This document shows, piece after piece, positions 1,003 to 61,141 of a DNA stretch of 64,000 nucleotides. Position 1 is the stretch's first letter. Each line of letters begins with the position of its first letter. The stretch spans positions 140,444,262 through 140,508,261 of the forward strand of contig CM031595.1 in the NCBI GenBank assembly GCA_018398815.1, in the 5' to 3' direction. The notes beneath the pieces were generated by a model that saw only the letters and a program-made list of their open reading frames with translations, did not search any database and was not told the origin of the DNA. The position numbers and the translations under genes were made by a program. The DNA is from Conus ventricosus (lineage: Eukaryota; Mollusca; Gastropoda; Neogastropoda; Conidae).

Positions 1003-1225
1003 TTTGAGCTGTTGATGCAGCCAAATGCCACTCTGGAGATCAACACGACGGCAGCAGCACTTGATCAGAAGGAGTTCACTGAGCTTCTGAACAGTCTTAC
1101 TGCCTACCCGCCCACTTTCACCTTCTTTGACAACGACCGCTGGATGAATGCCAGCTTGTATGAAGGGCCATGGAAGAAACTGGGCCAGGAGATGGAGAAA
1201 CTGTATCAAACCTACCAGGCGCAAG
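1003..1225 (+). CDS. Exon A1 (module 1)
   Basis: Acceptor ctttcag before 1003, donor gtgggc after 1225. The frame opens FELLMQPNATLE and has sequons NAT, NTT and NAS. At 223 nt it ends in phase 1 where A exons end in phase 2, so one base may be missing near the 3' end. The start resembles other A exons (F-x-P-N-A/S-S/T). Confidence 0.75.
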
Positions 1226-3252
1226 GTGGGCTCTGATCTTTTTTGTTTGAGTGTGTAGGTTTTCTTTCCTCATTTGTGAAACAGTCTGAAGTCGTAACTG
1301 AGATTATCTTGAGAGCAGGGTTTTAAAGAGCCACAGAATGTGAATAAGTCTTACATCATCACTACTGTTGTTACAGTCGGCAGCATTGAAATGAGCGGGA
1401 AAAGTTAAGTTGTATTCATTTATTATTTATCAACCATTTGACTACTGTTGATGGCATACTCCTCAGTGAGAGAGTGTCACATTCTTATGATAGGATGAGG
1501 CAAATGGATCAGGTAACCAGTGAAAGACATATCTTTGAGGTGGGATAGGGTGGACAGATCAGAGACTGTCACTGCCTTGAGGTGGGATGGGGCAGATGGG
1601 TCATCAGTGAGAGACAATCTCATGTTTGTATTGGGATAGAGCAGACAAGTCAAAGCATCAGTGAGAGACAATCTCATGTTTGTATTGGGATAGAGCAGAC
1701 AAGTCAGGGCATCAGTGAGAGCCTCACATTTTTATGATGGGTGGGACAATCAGTCAAATAACCTGGCACAGTTTTTTTTTTCTCTTGACCTCTTTCAAGC
1801 CTTACATTCGTAAAGATGAATCAGTGATACTTGTAGATTTTTAAAAAAGAACATTCTTGGCTGCTGTAATGAAGATTGGGGTAATTCAAGGTTAACAGTG
1901 TTGTAACCTGTTCACAGTGTCATGCTGCTGGTTGCTTTTCCTTTCTCTGCATTCAAGGTGAGTTGATTTTAACGTGGTGACAGCCCTGATATGGCCCTTT
2001 GCGGTCGGCTGGGGCTATAAGCAACATTATCTTATTTATCTCTGCATTCAAACTATGACACTTCAGTGAATGTCTTTTTTACTGTTTATTCATTAAATTT
2101 GTCTTTATACTGTTTATTCAGTAAAAATGTCTTTATACTGTTTATTCAGGCTATCATGAGCAACCTGCAGTCCATGTGCGTAACTTTGCCGCCATTCCTG
2201 AAATGCAGTTCCTCGCTGCTGGGGCTGGATGCTGTCTGGATGCTGTTTCAAAATGTATACCTCTTCTATGGGTGAGTACACACAGGAAAACACCACCATC
2301 TCATAATTGACAAGAGTCAAATGAATGATCAAAAATAATGTTCTAAACATTTGCAGCAGAATTATCTAACAATAAACCATTCAGATGTGTATGCATGAAA
2401 AATTAAGAAAACTTTTTCTACATTTTTTTTTTTAAAAGTACTAGCCATTCAAAATGTATCTATAGCACTTATTTCTCTTCTTCACTGAAAAGCGTCATCA
2501 AATATAAAAAACCAGTTGCATGAATTGTACCCCCTCCCCCCCAAAAAGTGCTGTCATTGCATTTTTCATAAACGATATAAAATGGCTGCTATGACTGAAG
2601 AGTTTTTAAAGCTTAGCTTGGGGTTTCAGTGAAAGGTTGAAGAAAAATTCATTCAAGGTAGTTTAATCATTTACAAAATGCTTCATGGCTGTGTCCAGTT
2701 TGAATTGTATCCGAAAGAGTTCAGGTCAGACAAGCTTGTAGAGTAGTCTTTGCAAGTTGTCCTCAGGTATTCCAAGGTTTTTTGTCATGCATTGTTATAC
2801 CTCACTACATGCAATTTATGATGTTCAGAAGTTTTCACAGTGTCATTGCGTGCTTTTTTTCTCTCTCTCTCAGGTGTTCCCGAGTCCTTTGAAACTATCT
2901 AACATGGAGACCTTCTACTCCCTGTTGGACAAGCTTCCTGAATTGCTGGAGATGTTAGCTTACACCACCATGCAACATTCCAGAGAGGTCAGTCAGACAG
3001 TCAGTCAGTCAGTCATTCTGTCCGTAGTCACTTGGTCAGTCTTTCTCATAGCTGCTCAGACAGTTTTTTCATCACAGGAAGTTTATTGCTACTCATTCTG
3101 CTGCAGGGCTAAAACTATACAAACATCCCCAGCAAAAAGGGTTAACACCTTTTTGAACGTCCACTCCCAGCTACTTGCACTTAGGTGACCATGCACAGTC
3201 AAATAGAATGCTTTCCTGATATCAGTAAATGAATAAATGAATTTGTGTGTGT

Positions 3253-3304
<52 letters not shown>

Positions 3305-6300
3305 TAAATTTAACACCTGTTAATTAAAATGTAGAGGCGTTTGTAGTGTGAAAATCCATTACTTTGGAACAAAGAAAAACTTCAATGACACATGTCTAAT
3401 GAAAACATCAAGGGATTTTCAGTTGAATAACTGGGCCGGAGCCATGACCTCATGGGAAACGTTTGTGGAAACTGATCCTTTCGACCTTGATGACAGCGCC
3501 CTCTGGGGGAGGCCTTGACGTGAGGAAGTGTTTGAGCAGATGTGTTCCATCAACATCACCCAGCTGGGTGTGGAGTTTAATACCTACCAGGACTGGACAG
3601 ACTGAATGTCATGTGAGTAGATCATGACTGCTTTGTTATGGTATGCTTGATTGAAGAAATGATTTTCCACCGCATAAACACATTCAAATTCGCATCGAAA
3701 CATGTAAGCATGCTTTATACTTATGCATTTTCATATATTCGGGTATCACTTAAGTCTGCATTCTTTCTCTCACTCCCCTTTTTTTTTCTTTTTCTTTTAT
3801 TTTTTTGGTTTTGTTTTCCTGTGCCATTTTCCAAGCTCCCACAGGGCATTACTCCACTCTGCTCCTTCTGGGTCTTGCACATAGCTGTACCCAGTGTAAT
3901 CCTGTGAGAGCCTCAACACAGCTTGGCTAGGGAGCAGTCCAATTATCATGAGGCAGCTCATGAGAGGGCATGCTCCACTGCTGTTGAGTCATTTTAGTGG
4001 AGTTCAGTGGTGCTTGTTCTGATGCAACATACACAGGACACCCGGGGTTAGATCCCTTATAGAAGGGCAGTAATATGGAGCCTGCATGAGGGAAAAAATC
4101 CTCCCTCAAAGGGTGTCAGCCACCACTATCCAACAATGGTGCCCATGAACTTGATGATTCCAGAGACTTCAATATAAACTGACCAAGGTGGCCACAGGAG
4201 TTAATTCAGTCAATGATTTTTTTTTGTTTGTTTTCTAGAGACATTCTTGAGGTTCACACTTCTGCCTATTGTTCAGTCATGTTGTTACGATTTGATTTTT
4301 TACTGTGTAGAATTAAAGAGCTTCAGAATGATGGCTTAGGCATCAGTTTTCCAAACATGTTAGTTTGAAGAAGAAAAAAAAAGCTGTGTATTTTGGTGTC
4401 TCATTTTTTCTTTCCACAAAGTGGCATTACTCCCGTGATGTTCCTTCCAACTCAAACCCGCACATGGCCACACCCAGTGTCATTCTTGTACAGCCCCGGG
4501 CAAAGAGTCTATGGGAGCAGCCACTATCAGGCCACTGTATGACAACCAGAGGAGACCATGTGTACACTGCTGCTGAGTTACTGTTTATATTGTTCAGTGG
4601 GTTTCCTGTTCTGATTGATGTTGTGATTTGATGGAGATTTAATTCTAGTGTAGAGGAGAAAAAGGCCAGGAAATCTTTTTCTTAAACTGTGTAGTTTTAG
4701 TGGCACTTGTGATCTGACAGTTTAGCGTAGGCCCGGAAATCTTTTTCTTGATTTTTTGTAGTTTTAGTGGCACCTGTGATCTGACAGTTCAGCGTGTTGT
4801 TTTCACTGCTCTTCACGCTTTCTGTCTGCATTGTTGTGACGGGCAGATGGCTGGAGGAAACCTGACAGAGCCCCTCATGTGACGGCTTGGCAGGAAAAGA
4901 TGGGCCGGGTGCTGAAAGACTTTGAAAGTATGAATGCCCCTCTTACTTCTGGGGACATGACATGCGCTTCCTCAATGCCTCAGTCTGGGCCCGCTGTCTT
5001 TGCCCGCCTGGGACAAGACTTCAATCAAACCGTGGACAAACTCATGTAAGGCTTTTTTAAAGGTTGTTTTGGGAACTGTTTCCCTTTTTTAAAATTCAAA
5101 GTTTTTATATGTGTTTGTCACTTGAAAAATTAATCTGAGTTTTTGTTGTTGTTAAATGATAAGTATGAATGTAGAAACTGTACGCAAGGAAAATTTGAGA
5201 TAACAAATAACAACAGTGACAAAGAAGGGAAGAAGAAAATCAGGACCATATAGAATACAAAGTGGTCAACACCAGTAAAAGGGAAAAATCTGAACAAAGA
5301 AAAGAGATTGCATTTAAGTTTGTTGTCTACAGACATGTCTTAAATATCATGATGAAGCATACATACTGTGTTTTAAACAGTGTTTGAGACTGAAGGAAAA
5401 ACAGTCTGCAAATTGTTTCCCACATTTTTTTTATGACAGCCTGTGTTAAGTGAATACAGGTAATATTTGAGAGAAATAGGGCTGAAAGATACCGACAAAT
5501 AAATGCCTTGTATAGGACTCAAACCCACAACCTCCTAGATGGCAACATGAGGAGCTAATCTGTGCACCATGACAACTGTTGTGTGTGTGTGTTTTTTATT
5601 TAAAAAGTTGAGGTGCCTGGACAAAGTCCAGTTTTGCTTCTAATCTGCAGGTCCCCAGAGGCAGTGTTGAAGCAGCTTTACAGCATGTCCAACATCTTTG
5701 AGGAGTTCAAAGGACTGCAGATGACTGCAGAACAGCTGATGGCCATCACTGATGTTGTTCTGGACCAGATACTCCAGTCAATGAAAGGTCAGTTTTAGTA
5801 GTAAGCTACTTCTCTTCGCCAAAAAGAAAACACACACTAAGCAGTAGTTTCAAGACTTAATGGGCGTACTGGGTTAATCCAATGGTTGGACATCTGCCAA
5901 GACTCATCCCACCTTTAATGGTTCTCCTATTTTATGGCTTAAATTTGACCTTTTTAATATTTTTCTGAATATGATACATACAGATGTTATTCTAGTTCTC
6001 ATTTGCTGATTCTCTGATTGTCCCATCCCATTATAAACACTGTCAAGTCAAATGAGATTCATATCTGAAATCTGTCCAGAATATTGAGAGCAGAATATCA
6101 TAAAGTTAATCATCATCTGTTTAACTGATCATCCTTGCATCTGTTGGGTTTCTTGGCTCTCACTTCTGGCCAAAAGGACACACATATGTGCTGACAGCTG
6201 TTCCATTATAAATAGGAATGTAAGCTGCGTTATAGAGGGCTATACATAAAAGTTTAGTTCGATGTGTTTCTAAATTCAGCTCAGTCGGCTCCTTGAGTTG

Positions 6301-9300
6301 TGTGTCTAAGTGTTTCTGGTTTTATATTCAACATGGGAATAGGAATTTCTGGCTCACTTTTCTACTTATTTTTTAAATGATTTTCTGCTCAAAACTAAGT
6401 TTATCGTCCTGTTTTTGCTTTCACCCTCTTTGTTTTCATGACTTCAATGGCCTTTTACCATTTTTCAGGTGGAAGTCTACAAGATATGTTCAGCAAATAT
6501 CTTTTTATTTTATGAATTTTTTTGTGTTCAACACTAAGTTTCTGGTTCTCTTACTGCTTCTACTCTCTTTGTTTAATTGACTTTAATTGCCTTTCATCAT
6601 TTTCAGGTGGAAGTCTGCAGGAAATGTTCAGCCAGTATCCTATGGTGACTTCAGCAGTCGGTCTGCTTGACAGGCTGCCAGAGATCTATGAGACCCTGGC
6701 CTACACTGGACTGTACACACCGGAAAAGGTGAGAGACATGACATTACTATTTCACATGATTTAATGCCCTCACTTCACACGAGAGACGGGACTGTTGATT
6801 CTTGCCCAGGTATGCTGTGGTCGGATATTTAATTCAGTAAATAAACTCAGTTTTAAAACACATTGGTTTTGTCTTAGGATTTGACATTCACTTTGTTCAC
6901 TGGCATATAACGCAGCTTTTTTTCCCAAGTCATATTCATTATGACAGAGGGCTTGTTAACCAGCATTTATTTTACTGTGACAGTTACTGTGGATTTCGCA
7001 TGGTTGTGCAGGTGACGTTTGTGATGGGAGAGAAGATGAGAAGATGAAATTTTTCTGCAGCTGATATGCATTGATCATTCTGAATGTTGTTCATTTGCAT
7101 CCTTAACCATAATCTGAATGATTCTCCTTACAGCTGATGGAACACTTCACCAGATGATGACCTTCGACACATTCTGCAGCATGGATATCTCACTGATCCT
7201 GACAGCGCCCCCTGGGTCCCACTACAACCTGACGTCATGGCAACACACACTGTGCTCCATCAACGTCACTGTCATGCTGGAAGAGCTGGGCCAATATCAG
7301 GGCATTGACGTTGTATGTGCTTTAGTTCAGGGTGTTTTGTTTTTAACATTCTCAATATCAGGGCATTGATGTTGTATGTGCTTTAGTTCAGGGTGTTTTG
7401 TTTTTAACATTCTCATATCAGGGCATTGATGTTGTATGTGCTTTAGTTCAGGGTGTTTTGTTTTTAACATTCTCAATATCAGGGCATTGATGTTGTATGT
7501 GCTTTAGTTCAGGGTGTTTTGTTTTTAACATTCTCAATATCAGGGCATTGACGTTGTATGTACTTTAGTTAAGAGTTTTTTGTTTTTAACATTTTCAGTA
7601 TCAGGGTTGACATTGTATGAACTTTACTGAAGGGTGTTCTTTTTTGTTAATTCTCAAAGAGCCATACCAGTCAGTGAATTTGAGAAAAAAGAATGAATGA
7701 ACAAAGTTATTATTAATGAAAATAAGCAGTACTGTTTTTCATATTCTGTCATCAACAAACAGGAAAAAGTAAAGCTAAAAACAAACAGCACAATATTCCA
7801 CATAAATGTTGCAGACAGAGAAAGACGGGGACAGGGTTGGGACGGGGGAAGAAGAGACTGAGCAAAGCGATTCCTTTTTTTTAAGGAAATCATGTGCACA
7901 ACTATTCATTTCTCCTAGCTAAGAGAGAGCTCTTCAAATAATGCCTTCCCCAACATGCATTTCACACATTGACTGATACAGTTACTTTAGTAATACAAAT
8001 GTTCCATAACAACCTTTACAGCTCCCCCTCCTCAGTGTCCACCCTCCCACTGTAAGATAGAACGTTTTAAGTGAGGATTGAGAAGGTGGAATTGAGAGAA
8101 TCGTTATATCAATGATTTTTTTTTGTTTTTGATGATATGCATGCTAATTGATGAAAAGATTGTAAATACAAGAATGCTTGGAAACTGAATTTGTTTCATG
8201 TGTAGAAGAAGCAGAGATTTTGTGGTCATTTCAGTACATTTGGAAATGTTTTCTGTCGACAGTTTATGCCCAACGCTTCAGTTTCTGTGAATCTGACATC
8301 CATTTCGGAGAAGCTGGAAAAGGTGATTGACGAGTTCAGGCAAGCAGCGTCAGGAGATGGGTCCAGCAGTCTGGACATCAACAACTACTTCAATCTCACA
8401 GCGTGGGAAGGAGTCATGCAGCGTCTGCAGACCTGGATGGAAGGCGCCTCCCAGGTCTGGAGGTAGGTGGAAGGAAGCACGGAACTAACTAGATGACCAG
8501 GGCGTTAAGTGACTGACCCATGCACACAGCCTAACCCTGCCAGATGTGGAGGTAAGTGGAACAAAACATGGAACCAGGTTTGCACCAGTCAGTTAGGTGA
8601 CTGGCCCATACACAGCCCAGTCCAGCCAGGTTTGGGGGTAAGTAGAACAAAGCGTGGAACCACTTTGGTGACCAGTGATTTCAGTCAGAACCAAGGGTCT
8701 CGATGAATCAAGTGGAGTGCAATATCTGGTCTCATGCCTCGCTTCTTGATGTTCTCGGAATGGTTTTCCCATTCTGAAAGGTGTGCTGTGCACTCCAAGT
8801 GATCCACTCCCACTAGTGAACCCTGAAGCCATGCTTTTGTCAGGTCAATTCCACACCATGATTTGTGGCCTCCTGACGTATAGAACATCAGTGCTGGAGC
8901 TTGGGGTAATGTTGTGTTTCCTCTGGCAGTGCTGGCTGCAGGTACAGTCTCTTTATACCTGGGTTCAGTTCCTGTATGATACAGCTGGGTCAGGATTTTT
9001 GTCTTCTGAACAAACGTCTGCTCCATGCAAGACTATAGGATGAAACTTTAAACTAAGATTTCTTCATGTATGAATACATGCATGAAAACACACACACACA
9101 TGCGCGCGCACACACACACACGCACACGCACACGCACACGCACACACACACACACAAATTTGCAAGCATAGGATCCCATTCCGTCTTTCGGAGAAGAGTG
9201 GATCATTAGGTTTCAGTCCAATTGGTGAGGCAAACACACTGCAGAACAACAACAACTAATATGCACACAGGTGTCATGTTTAGATATCACTCTTGATGAC

Positions 9301-12300
9301 CAAATATGGGTACCTTCATCGTGGATTGATTATGGTCCCATTATAAAAATGGTACCAGTGATGAAGCTCAGAGTTCTAGCCTTGGCATGATGAAGATGAA
9401 GAAGAAGGTTGTACAGTGTTGTGATAGTGTTGTAGTGAGATGGTCATCCCTCTCAGGGTGAAATATTGGTGGTCAATGGAGGAAAACGTGATGCTCCTCA
9501 TCACCTTTCAAGCATACTGGTGCATGATGGGCATCTCTGTGTTTTGTTTTTGTTTTTCTGTAACTCGTTACAGTTTTCACATCTGTACTGCAACTTGGAT
9601 AGTCGATGCAGATCTCAAAAGATGAATCCAACCCTGGAGATGAGGGTTGTGTGAATGTGTGTGTGGCTGTTGTCTATCAGCTCGATTTCATGTCAGCGCA
9701 ATGGTTCCTTTTTTTCAGCTCCACCTCGGTATACAAGAAATTGATGTCTGCTGGCATCCTGTCCAATCTGCAGACAGCTATCCCAGAGGTGAACACTGCT
9801 CTGACCTACACGTCTGCCATTCTGGACTTGTTCCTCCAACAGCTGGAACGCAGCACCAGTCAGTCTTCTTTTCTGTGTGTGTTTTAAACGTCTGATTGGG
9901 AGCAGTGGGGAGACTCCAACGGTATTCTGTCAAATGTTTTGTGATTAGGGCGGTGAGGCTACTCTTTGAAGCTATGGCATGATCTGGGACTGGTGGAATG
10001 CTCTGATGGCATTCTGTCACTTAATATGATTATGAACCTCCGGGGTTACTGTTTGAAGACATGGTATGATTGGTGATTGGTGGGTTTATTACTTTTTGAT
10101 GACTTCGTATGTTTGAGGATCAGGTGAGGAGGGGTGGGGGAGGGGGGAGGGGGCTACTGCTCTTTGATGGCAGTCTTTTAAATGGTATGATTCATGGCAA
10201 GGAGGTTACTTTGATAGTATTTTGTCTTACAGTGTGATTGAAAGCAAAGGGATTACTTTGATAGTATTTTGTCTTACAGTGTGATTGGAAGCAATGGGGT
10301 TACTTTGATAGTATTTTGTCTTACAGTGTGATTGGAAGCAATGGGATTACTTTGATAGTATTTTGTCTTACAGTGTGATTGGAAGCAATGGGATTACTTT
10401 GATAATATTTTGTCTAGTGTGATTGGAAGGAATGGGGTTACTTTCATAGTATTTTGTCTTACAGTGTGATTGGAAGCAATGGAATTACTTTGATAATATT
10501 TTGTCTAGTGTGATTGGAAGCAATGGGGTTACTTTCATAGTATTTCGTCTTACAGTGTGATTGGAAGCAATGTGGTTACTTTGATAATATTTTGTCTAGT
10601 GTGATTGGAAGCAGTGGGGTTACTTTCATAGTATTTCGTCTTACATTGTGATTGGAAGCAATGTGGTTACTCTGAAGGCATTCTGCCGTAGGAGCCATGG
10701 GGTTACTCTCTGATGGCAGTCTGTCCAATGGTTTGATTAGGAGCTGAGGGGAGGACTTCTGATGACAGTTCGTTTATTGGTGCAAATAGGAGCAGCGGGG
10801 CCAGCTCCTGTCTGATCATGTTCTAATGGTAAAATTGGAGGCCATGTGGTTACTCTGATCATATCCTGTCTGATAGCTTGGTTGGAAGACTACTCTCTGA
10901 TGAAATCCAGTCTAATGGTGTGACTGGGGACAGTGGAGTACTCTCTGATGAAATCCAGTCTAATGGTGTGACTGGGGACAGTGGAGCTACTCTCTGATGA
11001 AATCCAGTCTAATGGTGTGACTGGGGACAGTGAGGTTGCTCTGACTGTGTTCTGTCTAATGATGTAATGGGGGGACAGTGGATCTACTCTCTGATGGTAT
11101 TCTGTCCAATGGTGTAATTTGGGTTGTGGTTGTGATGGTATTCTGTCTAATGGTGTAAATGGAGGTAGTGGGGGCTACTTTCTGTCTGATGGTTTAGTTG
11201 GGTGCAGTGAGGTTTGTCTTTGATTACCGGTATATTCTATCAATTGGTATAAGGAAAGCAGCTGGGGTAGTCTCTGATTGTCTACTAATGGTGTGATTTG
11301 GGGGCAGTGTGGCAACTCTCCAAATTCTGTACAGTAAAGCTGAAACTGGAAGTTGTGTTGCTTAATCTACACATGTGCTTATCTGCATCAGACTTTCAAT
11401 GATCTGAAAGACAGGAGACTGTTTAGAAATCACCAGTAACAAATTAAACATAAAACATCTCTTCAAAGTGAGCCTAGTTGTCAACTGAAATCATTTCCTA
11501 TATAATGTTTATGTACTTGTGCTCTTACTGTGGTCAGTACCTACAGGCTGTAAAAAGTTACAATCTGATCACATGCTGTATGCTCTGTTCCCAATTGTAG
11601 GCTCATTGTCAGTATCGTTTGCTGAGTACCCTCACATGAGCACCATGTTGTCTCTGCTGGAGGAGGTGCCAGAGATCTTTGAGATGTTCGCCTATACCAC
11701 GCTGTATCACCAGGAGCAGGTGAGTTGGACTAGTGGAGAAGGACTGTTGGGATGAAGAGAATGGGGACTGATTGCAGAACACTGAGGAGAAGTATGTTTA
11801 CTTGGAATAAAGGGTTATTGAATCCTTCCTAACTAATTGTTGGAGCAAAATTGATGAAATTCCAGCATTTATGGTGAAGAAATCAGTGTTGTTCAGTGGT
11901 AGTGTGGAAGAAAGTGGAAAAAAAGGGTGAGGAACAAAGTTTTCATGGTGTGGAGAAGAGAAATGAAAGAATGACTGTGATTGGGAATGGTGCACAGACA
12001 GTTAGCTACCTTCAACACCCTGCCCACCAGACAAACAAGTGGATGTTTATTTTGTGATTTGTATGTGTGATAAATGATTTATTTATTTACATATTTTTCT
12101 TCTGAATGGTAAAGTGTTGGACGTTATTTTATTCATGTGATGGAATGTCACAATAATGTGGATGATTTCCTAGATTTCAATTATCATCAATTTCCCATAT
12201 CATATTCAATGGATTTATTTCATTTTGGCAGCTGGCAAGATGGGCACCTGCCATGGCATCCTGGGAAATGTTCTGCAGCTATGATCCTAATTCCCTGCTG

Positions 12301-23329: not shown

Positions 23330-23388
<59 letters not shown>

Positions 23389-25698: not shown

Positions 25699-25744
<46 letters not shown>

Positions 25745-25802
25745 TGAGTGAGTGAGTGAGTGAGTGGTGAGTGAGTGATGTGGTGTGTGTGTGTGTGTGT
25801 GT

Positions 25803-25866
<64 letters not shown>

Positions 25867-28475: not shown

Positions 28476-28519
<44 letters not shown>

Positions 28520-28589
28520 ACACGCACACATGCACACACACTCATACACACACACTCACACACACACACATACATGCACATATGCGCAC

Positions 28590-28672
<83 letters not shown>

Positions 28673-29157
28673 GACCAAAAAGCAATCCTCACATACCTGG
28701 CATTAAAGACAAAGAGAGGGGCTAACACTTACCTATATACTGCAATAACTGGACTGTCCAGAATAAAAAGAAAAGCAAAACCTGGCGCTCTTTAACATCA
28801 ATGAAGCCATCAGCTTTGCTGTGTATTGCAGACTGAACAGTGCCCTGGCCAGTATCATCACCACGTACGAGGGGCAGAGTACGGTACTTGCCCTCAAAAT
28901 CATTGAGCTGTATCTTCACAGCTTCAACATCATGCTGCAGGACATCAGCTGTGAGTCAGCTGTGGTGTTTAACATAGCTGCTTTTACGATTTGTTTTTCT
29001 TTTTTTGATAATGGATGCCTGTTTGTTTGTTTTTTGTATTGTTTGAAAAGTAAATTGATGTCTATGTGTCATGTTGCTCTTGTTCTTAGACATGTCATCT
29101 GAAAATGGCAATGAGTGCTTCTGAAGTAAAATACTGTTTGGTTTATAAAGATATGCC

Positions 29158-29198
<41 letters not shown>

Positions 29199-30598: not shown

Positions 30599-30647
<49 letters not shown>

Positions 30648-33278: not shown

Positions 33279-33325
<47 letters not shown>

Positions 33326-41276: not shown

Positions 41277-41350
<74 letters not shown>

Positions 41351-41970: not shown

Positions 41971-42068
<98 letters not shown>

Positions 42069-48000: not shown

Positions 48001-51000
48001 ATTTTGTTTGTTAGTGGATGTGAACATTGATTTTGTTTGTTAGTGGATGTGAACATTGATTTGTTTGTTAGTGGATGTGAACATTGATTTTGTTTGTTAG
48101 TGGATGTGAACATTGATTTTGTTTGTTAGTGGATGTGAACATTGATTTTGTTTGTTAGTGGATGTGAACATTGATTTTGTTTGTTAGTGGATGTGAACAT
48201 TGATTTTGTTTGTTAGTGGATGTGAACATTGATTTTGTTTGTTAGTGGATGTGAACATTGATTTTGTTTGTTAGTGGATGTGAACATTGATTTTGTTTAT
48301 TGGTTTGTTTGTTTGTTTTGCATCTACTGTGGAACTGTTGTCTGTTTTAGAATGAATATCATTCTCATTCAGGCTTTTTTTCAATTAGCTTTGTGGCCCT
48401 TTGCGGTCGGCTGGGCTATAAGCAACATTATCTTATCTCTTATGAGCTTCTGGTCAAGTGTACCAATTCGGACCAATGTAAGAAAGAGAGAGAGAAAAGA
48501 CAGGTAACAGTAGCTTATGTCTGTTCCTGATAACAAATAAAAGTCAATAAACTGGAAAAATTTCACACAACATTTCAATTTTTGCTGTTACTTACAAGCA
48601 AAGTGAAAAGCATTTCTTTTCATGATAACAGTTGATCAATTATCATGATTAATCAATAAAAGCAGAACATGACATTTGAGACATAAAAAAGGAACCATAA
48701 AGAATCTGTCTTGAGGAAAGAATAGTTGGTTACTTGTCAGTAACTTGTGCAATTTTCACACATCATAGTCACATTTCACAAGTTCTTGTATGGATGTTGC
48801 AGTTCTATGAGTTATCCATCGGCAATCTTCAAAGAGTGGCATGTGACCCATCCAGTTTTCGTCAATGTTCAAGTTCCCAACCGGCACCAATGTCACCGCC
48901 GTCCAGGTGTCACTGTGTGAGGCTGCAACACAGCGTGCATCCCGCATGCAGGAACTGATTGATCTCTTCCAGGCTGGAGACGTGCTGATGGAGGTAAGGT
49001 GCTGAAAAACAGCGAGGGGTCATTGAGAAATGTATCATCTGGCTCTCATGGGTATTTTGAACCATTCAGTACTCGTATTCATTTGATGATTCTTACCAAG
49101 TGCATTCAAAGACTTTATTTGCACATTTAATTGCTGATTCTCTTTCATTTTTTTGTTTTGTTTTTTGTTTATTTGTTTTTGTTTGTTTGTTTTTTGTCAT
49201 TTGTTTAGTGTTGGACTTATTTGCCTTTGTTTTGTTATCGTGTTTTTTGTACATTTTATTTGTCTGTTTCTTAGTATTGTGTAGAATTTTTGTTATCCCG
49301 TGCCACTGCAAGAAAAAACTGAATAGATACATGAGAAGAAAGAAATGAAATGTGAAAATGTAGTGAAAGAAAATAAAGAATAAAGACTTTTGACTTTCAG
49401 CTGGACCAGTTGGTGAGAGGGAACTACAGCAGTGCTGCCAGCGACATGGGTCTGTGGCAGGCATTGCACACCACAGTGTCAGACATGTTGGCCTACTTTG
49501 AGCAGATCCAGAATGGTCAGCTGGACGCGTCCATGTCTCAATCATGGCTGGATCCCATCTTGCAGCAGCTGACCAACCTGAACGAGCAGCCAGTTGAGAA
49601 GTAGGTATTGTGTAGCGGATGTGGAGTGACTGACTGTTTGTATGGGAGTTATGGAGTGACAGAATCTGTATATGGTTTGTGTCGTTTTTGTAGGGAAGAA
49701 GGGCAAGGAGAAGTGCATCACAAGTGTGTTTGTGTGTGGGCATGTCTGTGAGAGAGAGTGAGTATGAATGAGTATGCTTCCTAGAAAGAGAAGTGGAAAG
49801 GAGAGTGATGGCAGTTATTTCTTTCTTTTTCCTTTCAGAAGAAATATTTTGAATAAAGATGTAAAATGTTTTTCTTCTGATTAGTACATTTTAAAGATGA
49901 TCTTGTCACAATCACATGTAATTTCATCACCTTTGTCGGAATACTGCTGTAGCTTAGCCTTTTAAAAGTATTGCTTATTACATTTATGTATTGTTTGGAA
50001 GCACAGCAAATGCAGGTCAGATTCTATGGTGATAAAAGAGTGGCATATACACTGACATTTTGTTACAGTATGGACATGGTCTGTCGGAGTTACGTGGCCA
50101 TGATAGGAGGCACCACTGTCTTCCAGGCCAGCGAGAGTGATCTGGTCTTCATGTCAAGAACTATGGCTGTTGCTGCCAATGTCATGCCAATGATACCAAG
50201 TGAGTCATGTGTGGATGTGTGTGAGTGTTTGTGCATTTTGTGTGTAATAATGTTTTTGTTGTGCCGCAGTAATGTGCACACTGATCAATGTGTTTGTGTT
50301 TACTGGTCAGTTTGTCTGTTCCTTCACCTGCCATACGTTGATTTATCAAAAGTGGGGTTAAGTCCACCAAAGGGAATGTTTTTTTCATGTGTCTGTCTGT
50401 TTCCTTTTTGTTTTGTTTTGTCTTTTTGTTTTTTACCCACAAGATTACACAAATATTGTGGAACCAGTGCTGAAACATTGTGGTAGGCAAATTGAATTTA
50501 ACCAAAGAACAACCTCATGAACTGTTTGCATGGGTCCCTGGTGCACATCTAGATCAAAGAGAGGATCCAGGTTCTGATCATCAAAAACTGTCCGACTGAT
50601 ATGGACAAAACGTGGTGGAAAGATGGAATGTGGCCCGTGATATTCTGGTCTGGATCCATGGTGCAGGTTTGGATCAAAGGGGGGATTAGGATCTGCTTGA
50701 CCATGGTGGAGGGCTGTGCGCTCGCATGTCTCCTCCTTGTTTGTTTTTGCACTGTTATTGGAGGCAGCACTGAGCTTTACATTGGGATCGTAAATTACTG
50801 TACAGGCACACGAAAGTGATTATGTATCTTACTTTCAAAATGATTGCTATATGATTGTCCCAAGAAGACTGAGCTGAAGCTAACCAAGAAGTGTTTTATT
50901 TCCAGAACTGGATGGGCTGGTTTGCGCCATGACTAAACCAGATGGCCTTGACCTTGTTGCTGGAGTGAACTTCCTGAGACAGAATGGGCTGGACTCTTTA

Positions 51001-53051
51001 TTGGAATCGGTAATACCATTCTAGAGGGTTGAGAGAATTTGAATCCTCCTTCTCCCAGTAAATGAGAGCTTCTGTCTGTCAAATGTGGATATGGATTTAA
51101 TGAGAACAAATCTATGGAATTGTGTATTTCGCCTAAGTATTTTGGAATGTTTGTAATATACTGATCACACATCTTTTCATAAAAATTAAGAAACTGTCTT
51201 TTGGATAGGTGTGGGACTTGGATGGTGGGCTTTTATAGATCTTTCCCAGGATTAGAGTATAGACCCTGACATTGAGCTGTGCAAACACTGATAATGCAAG
51301 TTTACATTTATTTTTCAATAAAATGTGATTTATTTCATGTTGAAATAGTACTGTGGTGGGAACAGAGTAATAAGGCAGACTGATGCTTTGCAGTTTTCTT
51401 CTTTTGCACAGTCACGCACTCACCTTATCAAATGCAGCAACGGGCAACAAGGATGTGATTTGAATCCAAATGATGCGGAGATAGCAGTCCTATTAGCTCC
51501 TTTTTCAGAAGAGATTTTCTTTTCTGTCTTTTTTTTTCTAAAATGAAATATAAAGATTTTATGTATGTGGAGTTTGGCATGACTGAATGCATCCCCACAA
51601 AATATGGCATCACAGAACCATAGCTCAATCAGTTATCAAGATCCAACACTGACAAAACTTTTAAGCTATGGCTGAATGTGCCTTTGAGTGCAGTAACAAT
51701 ACAATATAAAGCTTGAAGAAAGCAGTACTAGACAACCACAAAACTGGCAAAGAAGTAAAGGTCAACCATCATGAGCTCTGAAGGATCAGAACTTTCTCAA
51801 AATTATTGAGAAGTGGTGAAAAGCTGGAAATCATGTCCCCTGTAAATTAAGCTACGAATCATTACAGCACAGTCTTAAGACTGAATGGTAACTGGCCTTA
51901 GTGGCTTAATCAGGCCTATTTCCTCTCTGGGTTTTGCCCAAATTATTCCAACAAAATGCTTAGTTTCCAGGAAATGCCATACATGCCAGGTAAATGCTAT
52001 AAATCCCATGTGTTTGGAAAGCCATGTGTTAATGTTTTTCTTTTTATGTAAAACAATAAAAACGAAAGAAACAAACACATGTAATCTTAAATTCTTCACA
52101 ACTTGTCCATGTATGAAAGTATTTTTGCATTCTGTCTTCTATGTTAATTTTTGTCACACTAGATTGCCACAGCTTTTGGTCTGTAAATATATTATCATTT
52201 AAGAGGCATGTTGGGATGGTTGAAACCTCCATATGCCTATTTCTAACTACATTATTATTATAGCCAATATAGACAAAGCAAAACAAAAACAAAACAAAAC
52301 AAACAAACAAACAAACCTCCAGTAATTCACATGAAAGAAACAGAGCATGCTTCAAGAAACAGGTTATTTTTGGGGAGGGAGGGTTAATGATAGACATTCC
52401 ACGTGTGTGTATGTAACTTATTGATCAACTTTATTGTGCAGGTATCAAACTTCATGGAGAATGGCACAAAGGGTGAGTTTCAGTGCTCTGAGCTGCTTGA
52501 GCCAACGGCGGCAATGCTGAGGTGGGTTCAGAACCTCACCCAGCCTGAATCTGACTTCAACATGGAGCGTTTGGGGTATTGCCTGGAACAGGGGTCTCGT
52601 CAGTTTGCGACTGTCCTAGATGGCTTCAACCAGTGAGTGGGCTGCTTTGTGCCACCATCCTCATTTGATTGATAAAATCTGTTTCTAAAGGGCAACAATC
52701 ATGTTTGATTGATAAAATCTGTTTCTAAAGGGCAACAATCATGTTTAATTGATGAAATCTATTTCCAAAGGGCAAGAATTTCTGTTCAGTATAATGGTTT
52801 TTGTTTGTTAACATTTTTTTGCTTTGAGGTTTATTTGTTGTACTGTGTCCTTGCATGTTGTCAAGGTTGTCAGTATCTTTACTGTCCTTATCCTCATTGT
52901 CCTTGACTGTATTCAAAGTTGTCATGTGAATGTTATTACCATCGTTGCCTACACATACACACACACTCAAACACACATACACACCAATCAAGTGTGTGCG
53001 CAAATACATGTACACACACACACACACACACACACACACCAGCACACGCAC

Positions 53052-53111
<60 letters not shown>

Positions 53112-53217
53112 ACACACACACACACACACCAGCACACACACACACCATACACACATATGCACGCATGCACACTCGCATGCATGCAGGCCCGTACACACGC
53201 ACGCACACGCACGCACT

Positions 53218-53253
<36 letters not shown>

Positions 53254-53270
53254 CACACGCACGCACACAC

Positions 53271-53334
<64 letters not shown>

Positions 53335-54489
53335 CCATTTTATTGGTGATCCAGCATAATTGTTACCCTCTTCACTCCTACCCACTTTCCTCTCATTCTC
53401 TCTGTCTTTCTGCCTCTCCTTTCCTGCCTCTGTTTTATGAACTGTGCTTCATTCCCCTTCTTCTTTCATACATTGTCATTCTCATGCTGACTTCTATCAG
53501 GGTAGTATTGTTTTGTGCATTTTGTTGCCTGTTGAAACATTTGAAGGAAACATTTGTCAAAAAATGACTTGTCTGTTTTACATTGTACACTAGATCTGCA
53601 TTGCTGTACACATTGTTCTGTGTGTTCATTCAGATTCTGTCATGTTGAGTTGTCAGGGTAATTTAATTACTATCCTTGCCCACACCTTGTTGAGGTGTCA
53701 CTGAATATCACAAAGCTTTTTTATCCTCTAATTGCTACTCATGTCCTGCCGGTGTGTTTGCCTGGTCAGGTTGTACCAGGTAGTGACCGACATGTCCCAC
53801 GTACTGAGTGAAGATGATCTCGGCGCTCTGCTGCACAACTCAGGGGAGACAAACAAGGTCCTCAACTTCATCCTGACCATCCTCTCACAGGAAAAAACAG
53901 GTACTGGCTGCACTGATCTGGCAGGGAGAGGTCACAATATACATTCTCTTCCCTTTAGTCTTGTGTTAATGGTTTCATTCAGTGTCATTTTACTTGGATA
54001 AAGTGATGATCACAGAAAATTGAAAATGATGGACGACTTCGCTGATGTGGCAAATAAAAGTCTTCATGTGGTTTTATTTGTTTTGTATTGTGTAAAAGTT
54101 GACCAGTGTACCAAGCGCATGTCAGATGAGTATGTTGTTCCCAGTTTTTTTTTCTTTTTTCTATCACATGCTAACCTTCAGATTTTGACATCTTTGGTAA
54201 TAAACTTGCAGGCTTGGAAAAAGCTATTGAGACAAATTCACTTGTTCTTAAAATGATAAGATCTCACATACCCATTAAAAAGCAATTCATTTTCAACTGC
54301 TGTTTCAACTATATCTACCTAGTCATGAGGTCATGGTTTATAAAGAATAAGAAACTTGACAAATACAGATAAAGGAAAGGCAAACAATGACAAACAATCA
54401 AAAAAAAGGTTAAAAAAAAAGTGTTAACGAACAAAGGAAGCAGCATGAAATGTGCACACACATATATGCACGCACACACTCTCACACAC

Positions 54490-54523
<34 letters not shown>

Positions 54524-57400
54524 ACACACACACACACCGCACGCATGCACGCATGCATGCAGGCACGCACGCACACTACAGGCGTCCATTGTATCACTTC
54601 GTTTTATACTGATGCTCATGGACACTGGTGCCTGTGATACTGACTGTGATACGTATCTCTTGCAGTGATTCTGCAGTTTGCTGACTTGCTGTCCAACAGC
54701 ACAGACGTCCAGACCTACCTGACCAATGTGATGAAACTGACGCCAGAAGCGGTCACTGCCCTACTGGAATCCACCATCCAACTGAATGCTGTAAGTATGT
54801 CACTTAGATTGATGCCATGCTGTACCATTTTGGTGCAGTTGAAGAGATGGTGTCGCCAACTATCAGGGGCAGATAACAATGAGAAGGGTTCTTGATTCAA
54901 GCCGTGCGTAGCCATAGAGTTTTGGTCTGTCATCCCTGTTCTCCTATTCCATTAGATTTTGGATGTTAGTCTGGATGCTAGTCCTAATCATCCATAAAAA
55001 TGGGGCTTGGTGGCCTGCCGGATAAAGCGCTAATCTTTTGATGTAAGGACACAGGTTCAGTTCTCACTTGAGGCAGCCAGTTTTGAGATTACTTCCTGTG
55101 AGTCAGCACTGGTGCAGAAGCCAGTCCCTTCCAAAGTCTATAACTGAGACCCCATATGTTAATATATGCAGGAAAAAATAACAACAAAATCCTCACATGC
55201 ACTTATCAGATTCCTTTCCACCCTTCATAGAAGAATTGGCCGTTGTGTGCCTGTGAGATGGAGGACACAACAAAAGGATATGCATGAACTCTGGTGTCAT
55301 GCTTAGATATCGGCCCTGAAGACAGAGTGTGGCTTCTGTGCAGTAGGACTGAAAACAGTCACACATGCACAAATCACATCAGTGGTGAACTTTGGAGTAA
55401 GACGAGGAGCCTGGAAGAAAAAGAATGTGATAGAATAAGATCTAATGTGCAAGATTAAAGACCCGAAAGCAAAAGAAAATAAAGAAAAGGAAAATTCTCC
55501 TGGGCCAAACCCCTACTTTGACAGGAAACAAGTTTGTATGTATAGTGCAACATCTGTTCAGTGTATTTATTGTTGTGTACAATGATACAAAAGCATTTTG
55601 TTTAATTATCATGGTAATTTGGCAATTTGCCTTTCATTTGTCACTTTACATTTATTGTTTGGTTAAGGTCACTTTAGTTTGTAAATACTGACATTCTGTG
55701 TTTCAGTCAAATTTCCTCATTACACCGTGCCAGAAATCGTCAACATTCTGTGTAATCCTGCTCATCTGGACGAAGTCATGACTTTGCCAGATTTCTCTCC
55801 CTTTGATGAGACTGACATCACCGACATGTTGTGCACAGAAGACGTCAACATTACTGCAGGAATTTTCAAGGATGCTGCTAAAACAGGGGACGTCATTGCA
55901 CAAGTCAGTATACTGTACAATAGAAGTATAGTAAAACCTCTCTTAAAATGAAAAAAAACTTTTTACTGCTGGATTACCCATATCCACACACCTACCGTTT
56001 TTCATTAACTACCAATGCACCTGTGGCCACCCATAGAGGGTGTCTCTACATTACATTTCCAAACTGGTTGTTTAGGGAGGTCAACCATTAAGACTTAAGT
56101 ATTTTCAGGGCTTGTGGGCACCCTTTCAGTATACTTCACAACAAGCAAAAATAAATTGTTACTGATGAAAACGTATGCAACAGTAATAGAGGACAATCCA
56201 TTTTACATTCATGTTGATGGTCTAGCTTCCAGTGTGTTACTAAATTGACAATGGCTCAGACATCAGTGTAGACAATACAGATGCATTTGAAATCATTCAA
56301 ACCTGAGTAATATAACTGACAGGATCAAGGTGTAGGACAGTTGGTGTGGATGTGCAGATCTTCACAGAACAGCAACGGAAACTCTTGAACTTTCAGACAT
56401 TGCCATTATCCCTCGCCCACCTTTTTTTTTTTTACAACAGTTGTTGTTCACATGTGTTTTTCAGCTAATGCGCCTTCTAAGCCAGGACCCCATGGAACAA
56501 TTTGCCAGCACATTGACCAACGACCTGGTCACCCTGGTGTCCCAGCTGCAGAGTGTCACAGCTCTGATGGACATGCTTGGCAGTGGCTTTGACATCAATT
56601 TCATCATGGAAAACGCTGACACCATTGATGCTATTCTGGCAGGAGGAGGCACCATTCAAAAAATCGTGGAGAGGTTAGAACAAAGATTTCTGGGACAGGT
56701 TACATGTTTGTGTTGGGACTAGAATTTGAGGAAGTAAATCATGTTTACTTGTCTCAGAGAAAGAATGGCAAGTAGATAAGAAAAAAAAAGAATGACCATG
56801 AACACATATAGTTGAGTATAAAGGGTACTGGACTTTCAAGATGGGCAAGTTTTTTGTCTTTAACTAAGTTCAGAATGTAGGAAAGTCATAGATGTGTAAT
56901 AATGTATATAAACTGAGAAAACACAAAATGGCCATCCATCTTTCTGTCGTGCAACTGGAAGGGTTGCTGCGATTTTCACATAGCAGGCGTATCAGTGGTG
57001 ATGTGCAGTTGTGCAGAAACTACAAAGATGAAGAAAATGCTGAATTTAACTTGTCTGGTACTGGTGGTAGTAATTGTTTTAGCAAAAGCAAGAACTTTTT
57101 TTCACAGCTGATTCAGAGCACTGCAAACTGATTCACTGTACAGTCACATTTACTAGACTTGCTGTCCTTATGAACAGATTATCAATATGAACAAAGTGGT
57201 ATCAGCTTGAAGGCATTATCAGTGTGAACAGACAGTCAGCATGAACAGACTGTTTAAATACTTTAGACTATCAATATGAACACCTACTGAGCATTATGTT
57301 ATCTCCAGACAGACACACTGACAACACTCTTTGTACATCTACTGGTGTACTTCAGTAGAAAATTTAGAGGGGCATAAAGATAGTAACATATCGTCACATC

Positions 57401-57494
<94 letters not shown>

Positions 57495-60134
57495 TGGTGT
57501 GTGCTGCTGCGTGCATGCGTGCGTGTGTGCATGTGTGTGTGTGTACATGCATGTGTGCCAAGGTGAATGGTGAACAGAAGTGTAATCCATCTACACATGT
57601 TTAGTTTAAGTGTGTGAGGATGTTTTCTGCCTTTGTAAACCATTTTATCTCATAGCAGTTTATGACATGCCAGCTTTTTCTGGTGTGATCTGGCTGATAG
57701 AGAAAATAATATACACTGTCCAGAGTGGACACTAGCTATCCATTCTGCAGTGTCTATTTACCGGTGTCTTTTTTATGTATTTTACTGTGGCGTTCAAATG
57801 TTTCCATTTATTCTCATTTTGTTTTTTAAACTGGGAGAAAACCTGAAGGGGAATGCCTGGCACTCCCAATACTTTTTTATGCCTTAAGACATCAGTAGGC
57901 CAGCTTTGAAGTCATAGCTCTTATGTTTGTTCATTTTTAGAATTGTTTTTATTTTCATGTGTTTTCGGTGACCTGACATCTTTTATAAAGTGGTGTTTTT
58001 TTTCCATTATGAATTTGACAGCCCTGAAAAGGCTATGTGTAATCAGCTGGGCTGTAATAATCCAAATTTAAACATTTTACCCATGCCAATGTGAGAGGGG
58101 AACAGAAGGGTGATCCATTTTTACACAGACTTTATCCTAACCCATGCCAAAATGAGGGGTGAACAGAAGTGTCATCTGTCTTTGCATAGCCTGACGTCCC
58201 TGGTGGAGACGCTGAAGTACATGGTTCCACCAGAGTACAAGAGCGTCATCACGATATCCAGACTTTTATCAAGGGCTTGTTGGGCATCGACCTCGTCCAG
58301 TCTTACCTGTGGAAGCCAGTGAGTTATGGGACCTTGTTTTGATGACCTCCGCCTAGGAGGTGACCATTCCAACTGCATCTCTTGGTCTTTGTTTGTTTGT
58401 CTGCTGTCAGCAAGGTTCTGCACAAAGACCTGATTTTAATGAAACTTGGTGGAAAGGTGCGATGCAGTCCAACGACAAACCCATTTAATTCTGGTGTGGA
58501 TCCAGATGAAGAGGCAGATCCACTTTTTCACTTTCTTGACATTGTATTTTTTCATAATTTTCTTAACTTTCTCCCTATATGCATGGAACTCAGTGGGGAA
58601 AAACCCAGCCTAATAGGATGCTTTGATGTCATGAACTTGTAAGACGTGGTGCTGGTTTGGACTCCAAATGCACTGATTATGGTTTGGTGTGCTATGAACT
58701 GGACTGAGAGGTGGCAGCAGCAATACCAATATGAATAACACAGAAATAATGAGATTGACATGTGCAAGACATGGAGACGTTTGATTATGTCTGTCATGCA
58801 GTAACAAAGTCTTCCCTGCAAAAAAAAAGTTGGAGATGAGTGCATGATCAATGGAGTCTTAACAGTAGAATCCAGATCAAAAATTTGAATTTAATCATTT
58901 ATTTGTCTAATTTCAATCACAGTGCATTTTTTAACGATGATGTATATTACGGAGGATGTTTGTTTGCAGTCCATGTGTCGGACCTTCAATCACAGCGCAT
59001 TTTTTAACGATGATGTATATTACGGAGGATGTTTGTTTGCAGTCCATGTGTCGGACCTTCCATCACAGGCATTTTAACGATGATGTATAGTACGGAGGAT
59101 GTTTGTTGCAGTCCAAGTGTCGGACCTCCAGCAGGACCCAGTGGCAGACGTCTATACCTGAAGATGGCTGGGCTTCAGCTGAAGCTGCCTCTACCTCTGT
59201 CCAGCACTTCTCCATCGATGGTCAGTTATGAGAACAGAACATTCAGAAAATTGCTGCTGTACAGATTGTTATTTCCTCTCCGTGTACTTTCATATTCATG
59301 TATTCTTTGTTCCTCTTCCTTTGTGTTGCATACATTTTCTTTGTTGTCATAGTCATGGCATTTGAGAGTAGCTTATGCTTCCTCTAAGCTGCTTTCATCA
59401 TTGCAATGAATAAAAGGGAAAGCAGAAGGATAGTGGTAGGAGGAGAGGATGGAATGGGAAAGAAGATATATGCTGATTTTGGAATGCAGTATGAAAAACG
59501 AATAATGCAGCATGATTACTTCAACCTGAAAATCATGACAAAGAGATCTGTTTCCCTACGTGTGAGGATAGAAGAGAGTGACACAGAGAGAATGATCTTT
59601 TTTTGAAAGCAGTGACATACTCTTTTTTGTTTGTTCATGAGTTGCCTGTTTTCCAAAAAATACTTAGAGTGACCTTATTTGCTCTTTAGGGATAATTTGG
59701 GGGGAAGAGGAACGGGGAGGGGGTATGTTGTAAGCTCAAATGCACACCTGCACACTTATCCTGCAACAGCCCATCCAATGTGCTCTGTTTTCTACGTGCA
59801 GTTCCTGAATGCCAGTGGTCTGGTGATGACGACGGAGCCCTGTGAGGAGCGGCTGCCACGCTTCATCCTGATGAACAGCACGGAGAAGCTGAGGGGAGGT
59901 CCAGCAAGTCGCACTTCAACTCGCAGCTCACAGATCACATGCAGGTTCATGTGCCCTCAGACTTGCACGCTGCTCAAAAGTTGGTGTGTGGTGAGTGTAT
60001 GTGTATATGTGTGAGTGTGTGTGTGTGTGTTGCGTGTATGTGTGATGTATGTGTGTGCGTGTTGTGTGTGTGTGTGTGTGTGTGTGTGTATGCGTGTGTG
60101 TGTGTGTGTATGCGTGTGTGTGTGTGTGTGTGTT

Positions 60135-60171
<37 letters not shown>

Positions 60172-61141
60172 CCACAATTGGGTACACCAGCTGTCTTTTC
60201 TGCAGTGTCTTTTTTCCCAAATGACATTTTTTAATGTATTTTCTGTTTCATTTATATGTTTCTCAATGATTAAGCCTGCTCTTTTTCACCTGAGAAGAAG
60301 AATTGCCCATGACATTTTTTTACGTATTTTCTGTTTTATTTATGTTTTTCAATGATTAAGTCTGCTCTTTTTTTACCTGAGAAGGAGAATTGGAGCAAAT
60401 GGCAGGCGCTGTGTGCATTACCTAGTCTTACCTGCCTTAACAATGTCAGTGGTTAAGCTACCTTGTCATTTAATGTTTTTGTTTCGTTTGCTTCTCTTTT
60501 TTTTTTAATAGCTGTAACTTTTTTTTTTCATTGATGCAAACTTTTTATTTAAATGTGATAGTTTTTCTTGTTGAAGTTTGACAGGCTGAAAAGGCCCTGT
60601 AAGGCAGGTTGGGCTTTGATAAGAAAAGCTGTAAACTGTTTGCGTCATTATATCACATACTCTTGCAATGCTTTGCTGCACTTGCTGAATATGATAGCAA
60701 TTTCGTTTTGTTGGGAATACATCACATGCTTTGGCAATACTCTTTAGGACTTGCTGAAGAAGTGAACATACAAGTTCTTGCTGTTGTTTTTTTTGCAGTA
60801 CATCACATACACTGGCAATTCTCTGCTGGAGTCGATGAACCTGACCAAGTCAGAGGCAAAGGAAGTGTTTGAGTCGCTATCAGACTGGCAGCCAGAACTT
60901 GCAGGAAGCCACAGTGTTCCTGCTGGAAGATGACAGCTCCTTCAGCGCTCTGCTGTCCAACGTGGAGATGACCGCGGAAGGAAGTATGTTGGCCATTTGT
61001 TTCTATCCCTGTGAAAGAGGATCTATTCCTTTCCTTCAATTTGTATGTCTGATTTGTGACAATATTTGCAAAAAGCTGTGATGTTTGTGAGTAAGATCAT
61101 GTTTTATGTGTGCTTGGGTCTGTGTGTGTGTGTGTGGTGTG

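What the first reader, a model, noticed from the sequence alone, without database searches (positions are those of the whole stretch)
1003..60983. About 14 tandem four-exon modules (A-B-C-D) with fixed phases form a 3,000-residue repetitive ectodomain
Seen directly: exon lengths cluster at about 200, 131, 122 and 192 nt, and phases run 0>2>1>0>0 in order through the window. Motifs recur by exon type (A: F-N-x-T-x-W; B: VLDQxLxxM; C: LLDxLPEIYE; D: paired Cys with LCSINVT). The module therefore duplicated as a genomic block with introns. I know of no described animal gene with this exact architecture; an ABCA12/13 ectodomain is the closest idea.
Basis: partly seen in the sequence, partly recalled or inferred. 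Interest (0 to 1): 0.85.

Follow-up and report, generated by a model that had tools for sequence, protein, structure and literature searches.

The report
Giant lipid transporter with repeated ectodomain
An animal gene for an ABCA-type lipid transporter has had one small group of exons copied about fourteen times, building a very long arm outside the cell, and the intron positions still record how it grew.

Summary
An exon-chaining pass with no module order imposed finds 33 exons on the + strand, 2 on the - strand and at most 1 in 20 shuffles. Phases recur as 0>2, 2>1, 1>0, 0>0. I place 39 exons (about 2,330 codons) in 13-14 A-B-C-D cassettes. One 874-nt exon (24594-25467) carries B-C-D-A-B-C without introns and has six relatives in public sequence. 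D and most C exons repeat clearly, A partly; B mainly by position and phase. The gene is an ABCA-subfamily lipid transporter. Downstream lie the ABCA ECD1 end, transmembrane segments (best PDB match ABCA1, 5e-52) and an intact second ATPase; upstream is an ABCA-like ECD1 start. The window is the inside of ECD1, where human ABCA4 has about 286 residues. New here: B-C-D matches human ABCA4 exons 4-5-6 in phase (2>1, 1>0, 0>0) and approximate length; the end of exon C falls on the ABCA4 exon 5 end, and both cysteines align. Sequence similarity alone is weak (HHalign probability about 1%; 6 of 200 shuffles as high). Most likely the ancestral ABCA ECD1 exon cassette was serially duplicated. Function and ABCA12/13 membership are inferred, not shown.

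The parts
1003..1225 (+). cassette 1, exon A (3' boundary unsettled: 1157 or 1225)
   Evidence: leave-one-out 0/300 shuffles
2874..2987 (+). cassette 1, C-type coding stretch (exon boundaries and phase unsettled)
   Evidence: leave-one-out 0/300
3522..3602 (+). cassette 1, partial D-type coding stretch; no valid exon boundaries found
4894..5045 (+). cassette 2, exon A (short; not in the leave-one-out test)
5651..5787 (+). cassette 2, exon B 2>1
   Evidence: 4/300
6607..6728 (+). cassette 2, exon C 1>0
   Evidence: 0/300
7154..7312 (+). cassette 2, exon D 0>0 (acceptor uncertain)
   Evidence: the frame from 7136 scored 0/300
8263..8462 (+). cassette 3, exon A 0>2
   Evidence: 0/300
9719..9858 (+). 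cassette 3, exon B 2>1 (donor uncertain)
   Evidence: 109/300, i.e. not supported by sequence
11598..11719 (+). cassette 3, exon C 1>0 (start 11598 or 11601)
   Evidence: 0/300
12232..12423 (+). cassette 3, exon D 0>0, paired Cys
   Evidence: 0/300
13217..13413 (+). cassette 4, exon A 0>2
   Evidence: 0/300
14787..14923 (+). cassette 4, exon B 2>1
   Evidence: 0/300
15872..15993 (+). cassette 4, exon C 1>0
   Evidence: 0/300
16757..16948 (+). cassette 4, exon D (donor uncertain), paired Cys
   Evidence: 0/300
17449..17651 (+). cassette 5, exon A 0>2
   Evidence: 0/300
23060..23178 (+). cassette 5, candidate exon C 1>0 (weak, profile 0.2 bits)
23606..23734 (+). cassette 5, exon D (short), Cys
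   Evidence: 0/300
24594..25467 (+). one intron-less exon carrying B-C-D of cassette 6 and A-B-C of cassette 7 (phase 2>0)
   Evidence: relatives P0002-P0007 lose similarity at the same splice point
26770..26964 (+). cassette 7, exon D 0>0, paired Cys
   Evidence: 0/300
27957..28183 (+). cassette 8, exon A 0>2
   Evidence: 4/300
28832..28950 (+). cassette 8, exon B 2>1 (by position and phase only)
   Evidence: 229/300
29573..29694 (+). cassette 8, exon C 1>0
   Evidence: 3/300
30389..30562 (+). cassette 8, exon D 0>0, paired Cys
   Evidence: 0/300
32157..32383 (+). cassette 9, exon A 0>2
   Evidence: 6/300
32846..32976 (+). cassette 9, exon B 2>1 (by position and phase)
   Evidence: 68/300
34101..34228 (+). 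cassette 9, exon C 1>0
   Evidence: 0/300
35858..35935 (+). cassette 9, partial D
   Evidence: 2/300
37595..37788 (+). cassette 10, exon A 0>2
   Evidence: 6/300
39119..39252 (+). cassette 10, exon B 2>1 (by position and phase)
   Evidence: 212/300
40469..40590 (+). cassette 10, exon C 1>0
   Evidence: 85/300
42712..42977 (+). cassette 11, exon A 0>2 (long)
   Evidence: 3/300
44754..44884 (+). cassette 11, exon B 2>1
   Evidence: 16/300
47588..47715 (+). cassette 11, exon C 1>0
   Evidence: 7/300
48856..48993 (+). cassette 11, exon D 0>0 (start 48856 or 48874)
   Evidence: 0/300
49401..49600 (+). cassette 12, exon A 0>2
   Evidence: 39/300
50069..50199 (+). cassette 12, exon B 2>1 (by position and phase)
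   Evidence: 240/300
52442..52632 (+). cassette 13, exon A 0>2 (by position and phase)
   Evidence: 112/300
53770..53900 (+). cassette 13, exon B 2>1
   Evidence: 51/300
54666..54790 (+). cassette 13, exon C 1>0
   Evidence: 11/300
56441..56673 (+). A-like or D/A exon 0>2 of the last cassette (not in the leave-one-out test)
60892..60983 (+). B-like exon 2>1 of the last cassette (weak; outside the count of 39)
63211..63348 (+). last ECD1 exon before the ABCA-conserved ECD1 end (outside the count of 39)

Best explanation
The window is the interior of the first extracellular domain (ECD1) of a giant ABCA-subfamily lipid transporter of an animal. The ancestral ECD1 exon cassette, still visible as exons 4-5-6 of human ABCA4 (phases 2>1, 1>0, 0>0), was serially duplicated with its introns, joined by a bridging exon A (0>2), into about 14 cassettes in the window and some more upstream. 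Each unit is predicted helical (low-confidence models) and carries a paired-cysteine element. Most likely (inferred) the array is a long, glycosylated, disulfide-stapled helical arm that extends the ABCA ECD1 lipid-handling tunnel away from the membrane, to bind or hand off lipid or to hold the transporter near an extracellular surface, while the ATPase core does the work. Shown: ABCA identity, repeat, phases, match of the exon C end. Inferred: duplication history in detail, fold, function.
For: Same contig and strand downstream: ECD1 end plus TM2-6 (13 of 13 PDB hits are ABCA chains; best ABCA1 5e-52, ABCA4 1e-49, ABCA7 3e-43, ABCA3 2e-22); TMD2 plus NBD2 (best 13 of 157 hits are ABCA chains, ABCA4 5e-94; Pfam ABC2_membrane_3 and ABC_tran above cut-off). 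Landmarks: the upstream AMPSAG exon aligns to ABCA4 residues 55-80 and the exon after the array to residues 366-416, so the array stands where ABCA4 has about 286 residues. Repeat statistics. Cassette origin: ABCA4 exon limits c.302/303, 442/443, 570/571, 768/769 from passages of PMC7544654 give 140/128/198 nt and phases 2>1, 1>0, 0>0, against B 131, C 122 and D 192 in cassettes 3 and 4 (B and C values are medians). Profile alignment puts the last residue of exon C of cassette 2 on ABCA4 Q190, the last codon of exon 5, and pairs ABCA4 C205 and C230 with the two module cysteines (cassettes 3, 4 and 7 share that junction column). The upstream exon at -30991 is 1>2 like ABCA4 exon 3 (c.161-302); the exon at ext 64579 is 140 nt, 1>0, and starts in phase 1 as ABCA4 exon 9 does (c.1100; its end c.1239 is recalled).
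Against: The sequence match of modules to ABCA4/ABCA1 is weak: HHalign probability 0.9% (E 0.027, B-C-D) and 1.1% (E 0.048, C-D), and 6 of 200 column shuffles score as high. B and late A exons barely resemble each other. Neither profile A1 nor A2 hits ABCA chains in the PDB. The AMPSAG match alone is only 9.9 bits, and the exons at -30991 and ext 64579 have exon scores near zero (0.1 each). Models of the fused exon have low confidence (pLDDT 43.7 and 57.4), with no PDB match at E<=0.001. NBD1 exons look broken and TM1 was not found, so an intact gene is not proven. Pfam names nothing in the TM2-6 part, and a whole-genome PF12698 search did not list this locus, though it scored only 27 of 32,968 candidates. 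No transcript was seen.
Confidence: 0.8

Rival explanations
1. The repeats are an unrelated helical repeat inserted into an ABCA ECD1, not copies of ABCA's own exons 4-6; the phase match is coincidence.
For: Sequence match of modules to ABCA4/ABCA1 is weak (HHalign probability about 1%; 6/200 shuffles as high); PDB profile searches miss ABCA.
Against: Three phases in order, similar lengths, coincidence of the exon C end with the ABCA4 exon 5 end, and both cysteines in register.
Confidence: 0.2
2. Two neighbouring genes: a secreted repeat protein followed by a separate ABCA gene.
For: No transcript was available; the end of the array (56-63 kb) is the least certain part of the model.
Against: An ABCA-like ECD1 start lies upstream of the array (-31 kb) and the matching ECD1 continuation follows it (64.6 kb onward) on one strand; the array fills the gap between ABCA4 residues 80 and 366.
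Confidence: 0.05
3. The locus is a decaying pseudogene.
For: NBD1 exons occur as tandem copies with frameshifts and stops; cassette 1 and some D exons lack clean boundaries.
Against: The 33 chained window exons are open by construction and far above the controls; NBD2 motifs are intact; the fused exon is 47-71% identical in six other sequences that lose similarity at the same splice point; indels between the NBD1 copies are 394 openings (253 of one base) against 552 mismatches, a pattern expected of unpolished long reads (the reading is inference).
Confidence: 0.1

Closest known systems
ABCA13 and ABCA12 (vertebrate ABCA transporters with very large ECD1)
   Same: ABCA layout with an abnormally large ECD1; ABCA13 is 5,058 aa (PMC7948424 and PMC13161189, passages seen).
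   Different: Human ABCA13 codes its extracellular domain in part by one 4.8-kb exon (title of Prades 2002, seen in reference lists); here the region is dozens of short phased exons. My paper searches (listings) showed no report of an exon-cassette repeat in ABCA13. Direct sequence comparison was not possible.
ABCA4 / ABCA1 ECD1 (exons 4-6)
   Same: Phases 2>1, 1>0, 0>0, lengths 140/128/198 in ABCA4 against about 131/122/192; exon C end and paired Cys coincide.
   Different: A single cassette there, about 14 or more here; bridging exon A (0>2) has no clear ABCA4 counterpart (exons 3 and 7 are 1>2 and 0>0).
Exon-phase-preserved repeat proteins such as titin, nebulin, fibrillin (recalled, no call)
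   Same: Tandem modules each carried by exons with fixed phases; occasional fused exons by intron loss.
   Different: Here the unit is a four-exon block and lies inside a membrane transporter.

Membership tests
ABCA subfamily of ABC transporters | TM1-ECD1-TM2-6-NBD1-TM7-ECD2-TM8-12-NBD2 layout | tested here: inconclusive
   ECD1 start and end, TM2-6, TMD2 and NBD2 found in order on one strand. TM1 not found (N runs upstream); NBD1 only as broken tandem copies.
ABCA subfamily of ABC transporters | closest sequence relatives among solved structures are ABCA chains | tested here: met
   13 of 13 hits; best 13 of 157 hits (ABCA1, 4, 7, 3)
ABCA subfamily of ABC transporters | ABC_tran and ABC2_membrane_3 domains | tested here: met
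   second half: PF00005 81.2 bits (cut-off 25), PF12698 94.9 bits (cut-off 31.6); the TM2-6 part matched no family
ABCA12/ABCA13 clade | tree position with ABCA12/13 rather than ABCA1/4/7 | not testable with these tools
   no ABCA12/13 sequence at hand; the ABCA chains among PDB hits are ABCA1, 3, 4, 7
ABCA12/ABCA13 clade | giant ECD1 | tested here: met
   about 2,330 codons located where ABCA4 has about 286 residues
Repeat derived from ABCA exons 4-6 | same exon phases and junction | tested here: met
Repeat derived from ABCA exons 4-6 | significant sequence homology to ABCA ECD1 | tested here: inconclusive
   HHalign probability about 1%, 6 of 200 shuffles as high; no ABCA hit
Repeat derived from ABCA exons 4-6 | same fold as ABCA1/4 ECD1 | tested here: inconclusive
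   low-confidence model

The most novel reading that the evidence does not exclude
The giant ECD1 of ABCA12/13-type transporters in general arose by serial duplication of one ABCA exon cassette (exons 4-6 plus a bridge). This gene keeps the introns as a fossil record, and the vertebrate ABCA13 giant exon is the same array after intron loss, as the fused B-C-D-A-B-C exon here shows on a small scale.
Probability: 0.45. Interest if true: 0.72.

Novelty: new variant of a known kind. Interest (0 to 1): 0.6.

Why it matters
The long N-terminal region of ABCA13 is needed for its cholesterol-internalising activity but was described as having no homology to known human proteins (PMC7948424, passages). 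If it is a repeat of ABCA's own ECD1 cassette, its fold and role can be approached through ABCA1/ABCA4 structures, the repeat number can be compared across animals, and whether the array carries lipid becomes testable one module at a time.

Tried and rejected
Pfam on joined repeat exons: nothing above any cut-off. PDB sequence searches with repeat segments: hits of E 0.068 or worse, taken as chance. First protein search with 629 joined residues: nothing at E<=0.001 among the 8,000 candidates scored; the profile re-search returned the same six. Own-genome search with the fused exon found only itself among 13 scored candidates. Viral-contig scan: 45 pattern matches, no relative. Structure models were of low confidence; Foldseek gave 46 matches at E<=10, none at E<=0.001; VIA-align gave middling Z (best 6.4) with common helical folds, and no ABCA chain among the 50 rows shown, which says nothing either way. 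DNA self-comparison of the window listed 11 matches over 150 bases, none cassette-long, so the duplications look old. Paper searches for a prior report (listings) showed none; subscription papers are not held.

In one search two stretches (2874-2987 and 7134-7312) were read in a wrong phase and show stops; their boundaries are marked uncertain, they stay in the 7,001-nt total, and the residue counts from that call are rough.


Full report
What is there. I scanned the window for internal exons with a simple splice and codon model, with free phases and no module order. It chose 33 exons on the + strand. The same settings gave 2 exons on the - strand, 0 or 1 in each of 20 dinucleotide shuffles, and 1 in each of two 30-kb flank stretches, with no A>B>C phase triple in any control against 7 in the window. 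Two caveats: the codon model was trained on exons from this window, and the chaining favours phase continuity. Gap-by-gap inspection added further D, C and A exons. I settle on 39 exons and about 2,330 codons, in 13-14 cassettes.

How good the repeat is. In leave-one-out profile tests D is unmistakable: 8 of 9 pieces beat all 300 shuffles, and the ninth is reached by 2 of 300. C is good (6 of 11 beat all shuffles, 9 of 11 within 15 of 300). A is clear in the early cassettes (4 of 11; 8 of 11 within 15). B is weak (1 of 11; 3 of 11). Among later C units, 34103 and the second C of the fused exon beat all shuffles, while 40471 (85/300) and the first C of the fused exon (22/300) do not.

The fused exon. 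Window 24594-25467 is a single open exon of phase 2>0 that contains B-C-D-A-B-C. A protein search returned six relatives of 47-71% identity, and similarity stops at the same splice point in all six. So the fusion is conserved beyond this genome and intron loss (or absence) inside the array is not recent. A plain MAFFT alignment put five separate D exons onto the D part of the fused exon with both cysteines in register, and three early C exons onto its second C part; their tails were scattered.

What gene it is. The window lies at C1:140444262-140508261 of a 3.5-Gb genome. I fetched 200 kb downstream and 50 kb upstream, with N runs in both. Downstream exons in order encode the conserved ABCA ECD1 end, TM2-6, then a second half with TM segments and NBD2; Walker A and signature motifs of NBD2 are intact. 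PDB comparison gives ABCA1 5e-52 and ABCA4 1e-49 for the first part and ABCA4 5e-94 for the second. Pfam agrees for the second part and names nothing for the first. Upstream, at -30991 to -30865, is an exon with the ABCA ECD1 start (its exon score is only 0.1). On ABCA4, this exon meets residues 55-80 (9.9 bits) and the exon after the array meets residues 366-416. The array therefore stands where ABCA4 has about 286 residues, with about 2,330 codons located in the window alone.

Where the cassette came from. Human ABCA4 variant descriptions (PMC7544654, passages) place exon limits at c.302/303, 442/443, 570/571 and 768/769. Exons 4, 5 and 6 therefore have 140, 128 and 198 nt and phases 2>1, 1>0, 0>0: the phases of B, C and D. 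A profile of C-D units aligned to ABCA4/ABCA1 puts the last residue of exon C of cassette 2 on Q190, the last codon of ABCA4 exon 5, and pairs both cysteines with C205 and C230. The score itself is weak (HHalign probability 1.1%, E 0.048, 6 of 200 shuffled targets as high; a B-C-D profile gave probability 0.9%, E 0.027). The case therefore rests on phase, length, exon end and cysteines together. The upstream ECD1 exon also keeps the phase of ABCA4 exon 3 (1>2). Bridging exon A (0>2) closes the phase circle from D back to B; I did not find its source.

How it probably works (inferred). ABCA ECDs form hydrophobic tunnels, and ABCA2, 12 and 13 have abnormally large ECDs (PMC13161189, passages). 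[quoted passage not shown] The located repeat codons contain about 45 N-glycosylation sequons, about 23 cysteines of which 14 lie in D exons, and more acidic (266) than basic (118) residues (rough because two stretches were misframed). Both models are all-helical, of low confidence. I read the array as a long, glycosylated, disulfide-stapled helical arm extending ECD1.

Limits. No RNA was available. TM1 was not seen. NBD1 appears as tandem copies with many one-base indels; I think that this is an assembly fault, but real decay is not excluded. Membership in the ABCA12/13 clade was not testable.

Noticed in passing
L003-L005, about 15-37 kb past the window end (ext 79095-92331 and 97554-101112): NBD1-coding segment present as tandem copies (82.7% identical over 6.9 kb, 394 gap openings, 253 of them one base, against 552 mismatches), with frameshifts or stops and an altered Walker A; probably unpolished false duplication, possibly true decay.
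   Followed up: partly
L004-L005, ext about 93.7-96.9 kb: Open stretches that look like a non-LTR retrotransposon (endonuclease- and RNase H-like peptides; motifs recalled) inside the NBD1 region.
   Followed up: no
window 45181-46403: Stretches 512 bases apart with identical translations in four ORF pairs (72, 52, 41 and 25 residues): a very recent tandem copy in an intron.
   Followed up: no
window 36766-37213, 47978-48298, 46163-47152, 10197-10675: Long minisatellites in introns (63 bp x 7.1 at 97%, 29 bp x 11.1 at 98%, 30 bp x 33 at 91%, 47/91-bp arrays).
   Followed up: no
window 18822-19267, 31196-31836, 61858-62510: Three related interspersed repeat copies, 66-73% identical.
   Followed up: no
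upstream, window -29920 to -13961 (L022-L026): Further B-, C- and A-like exons, so the array began before the window; three 5-kb N runs hide part of the upstream 50 kb.
   Followed up: partly
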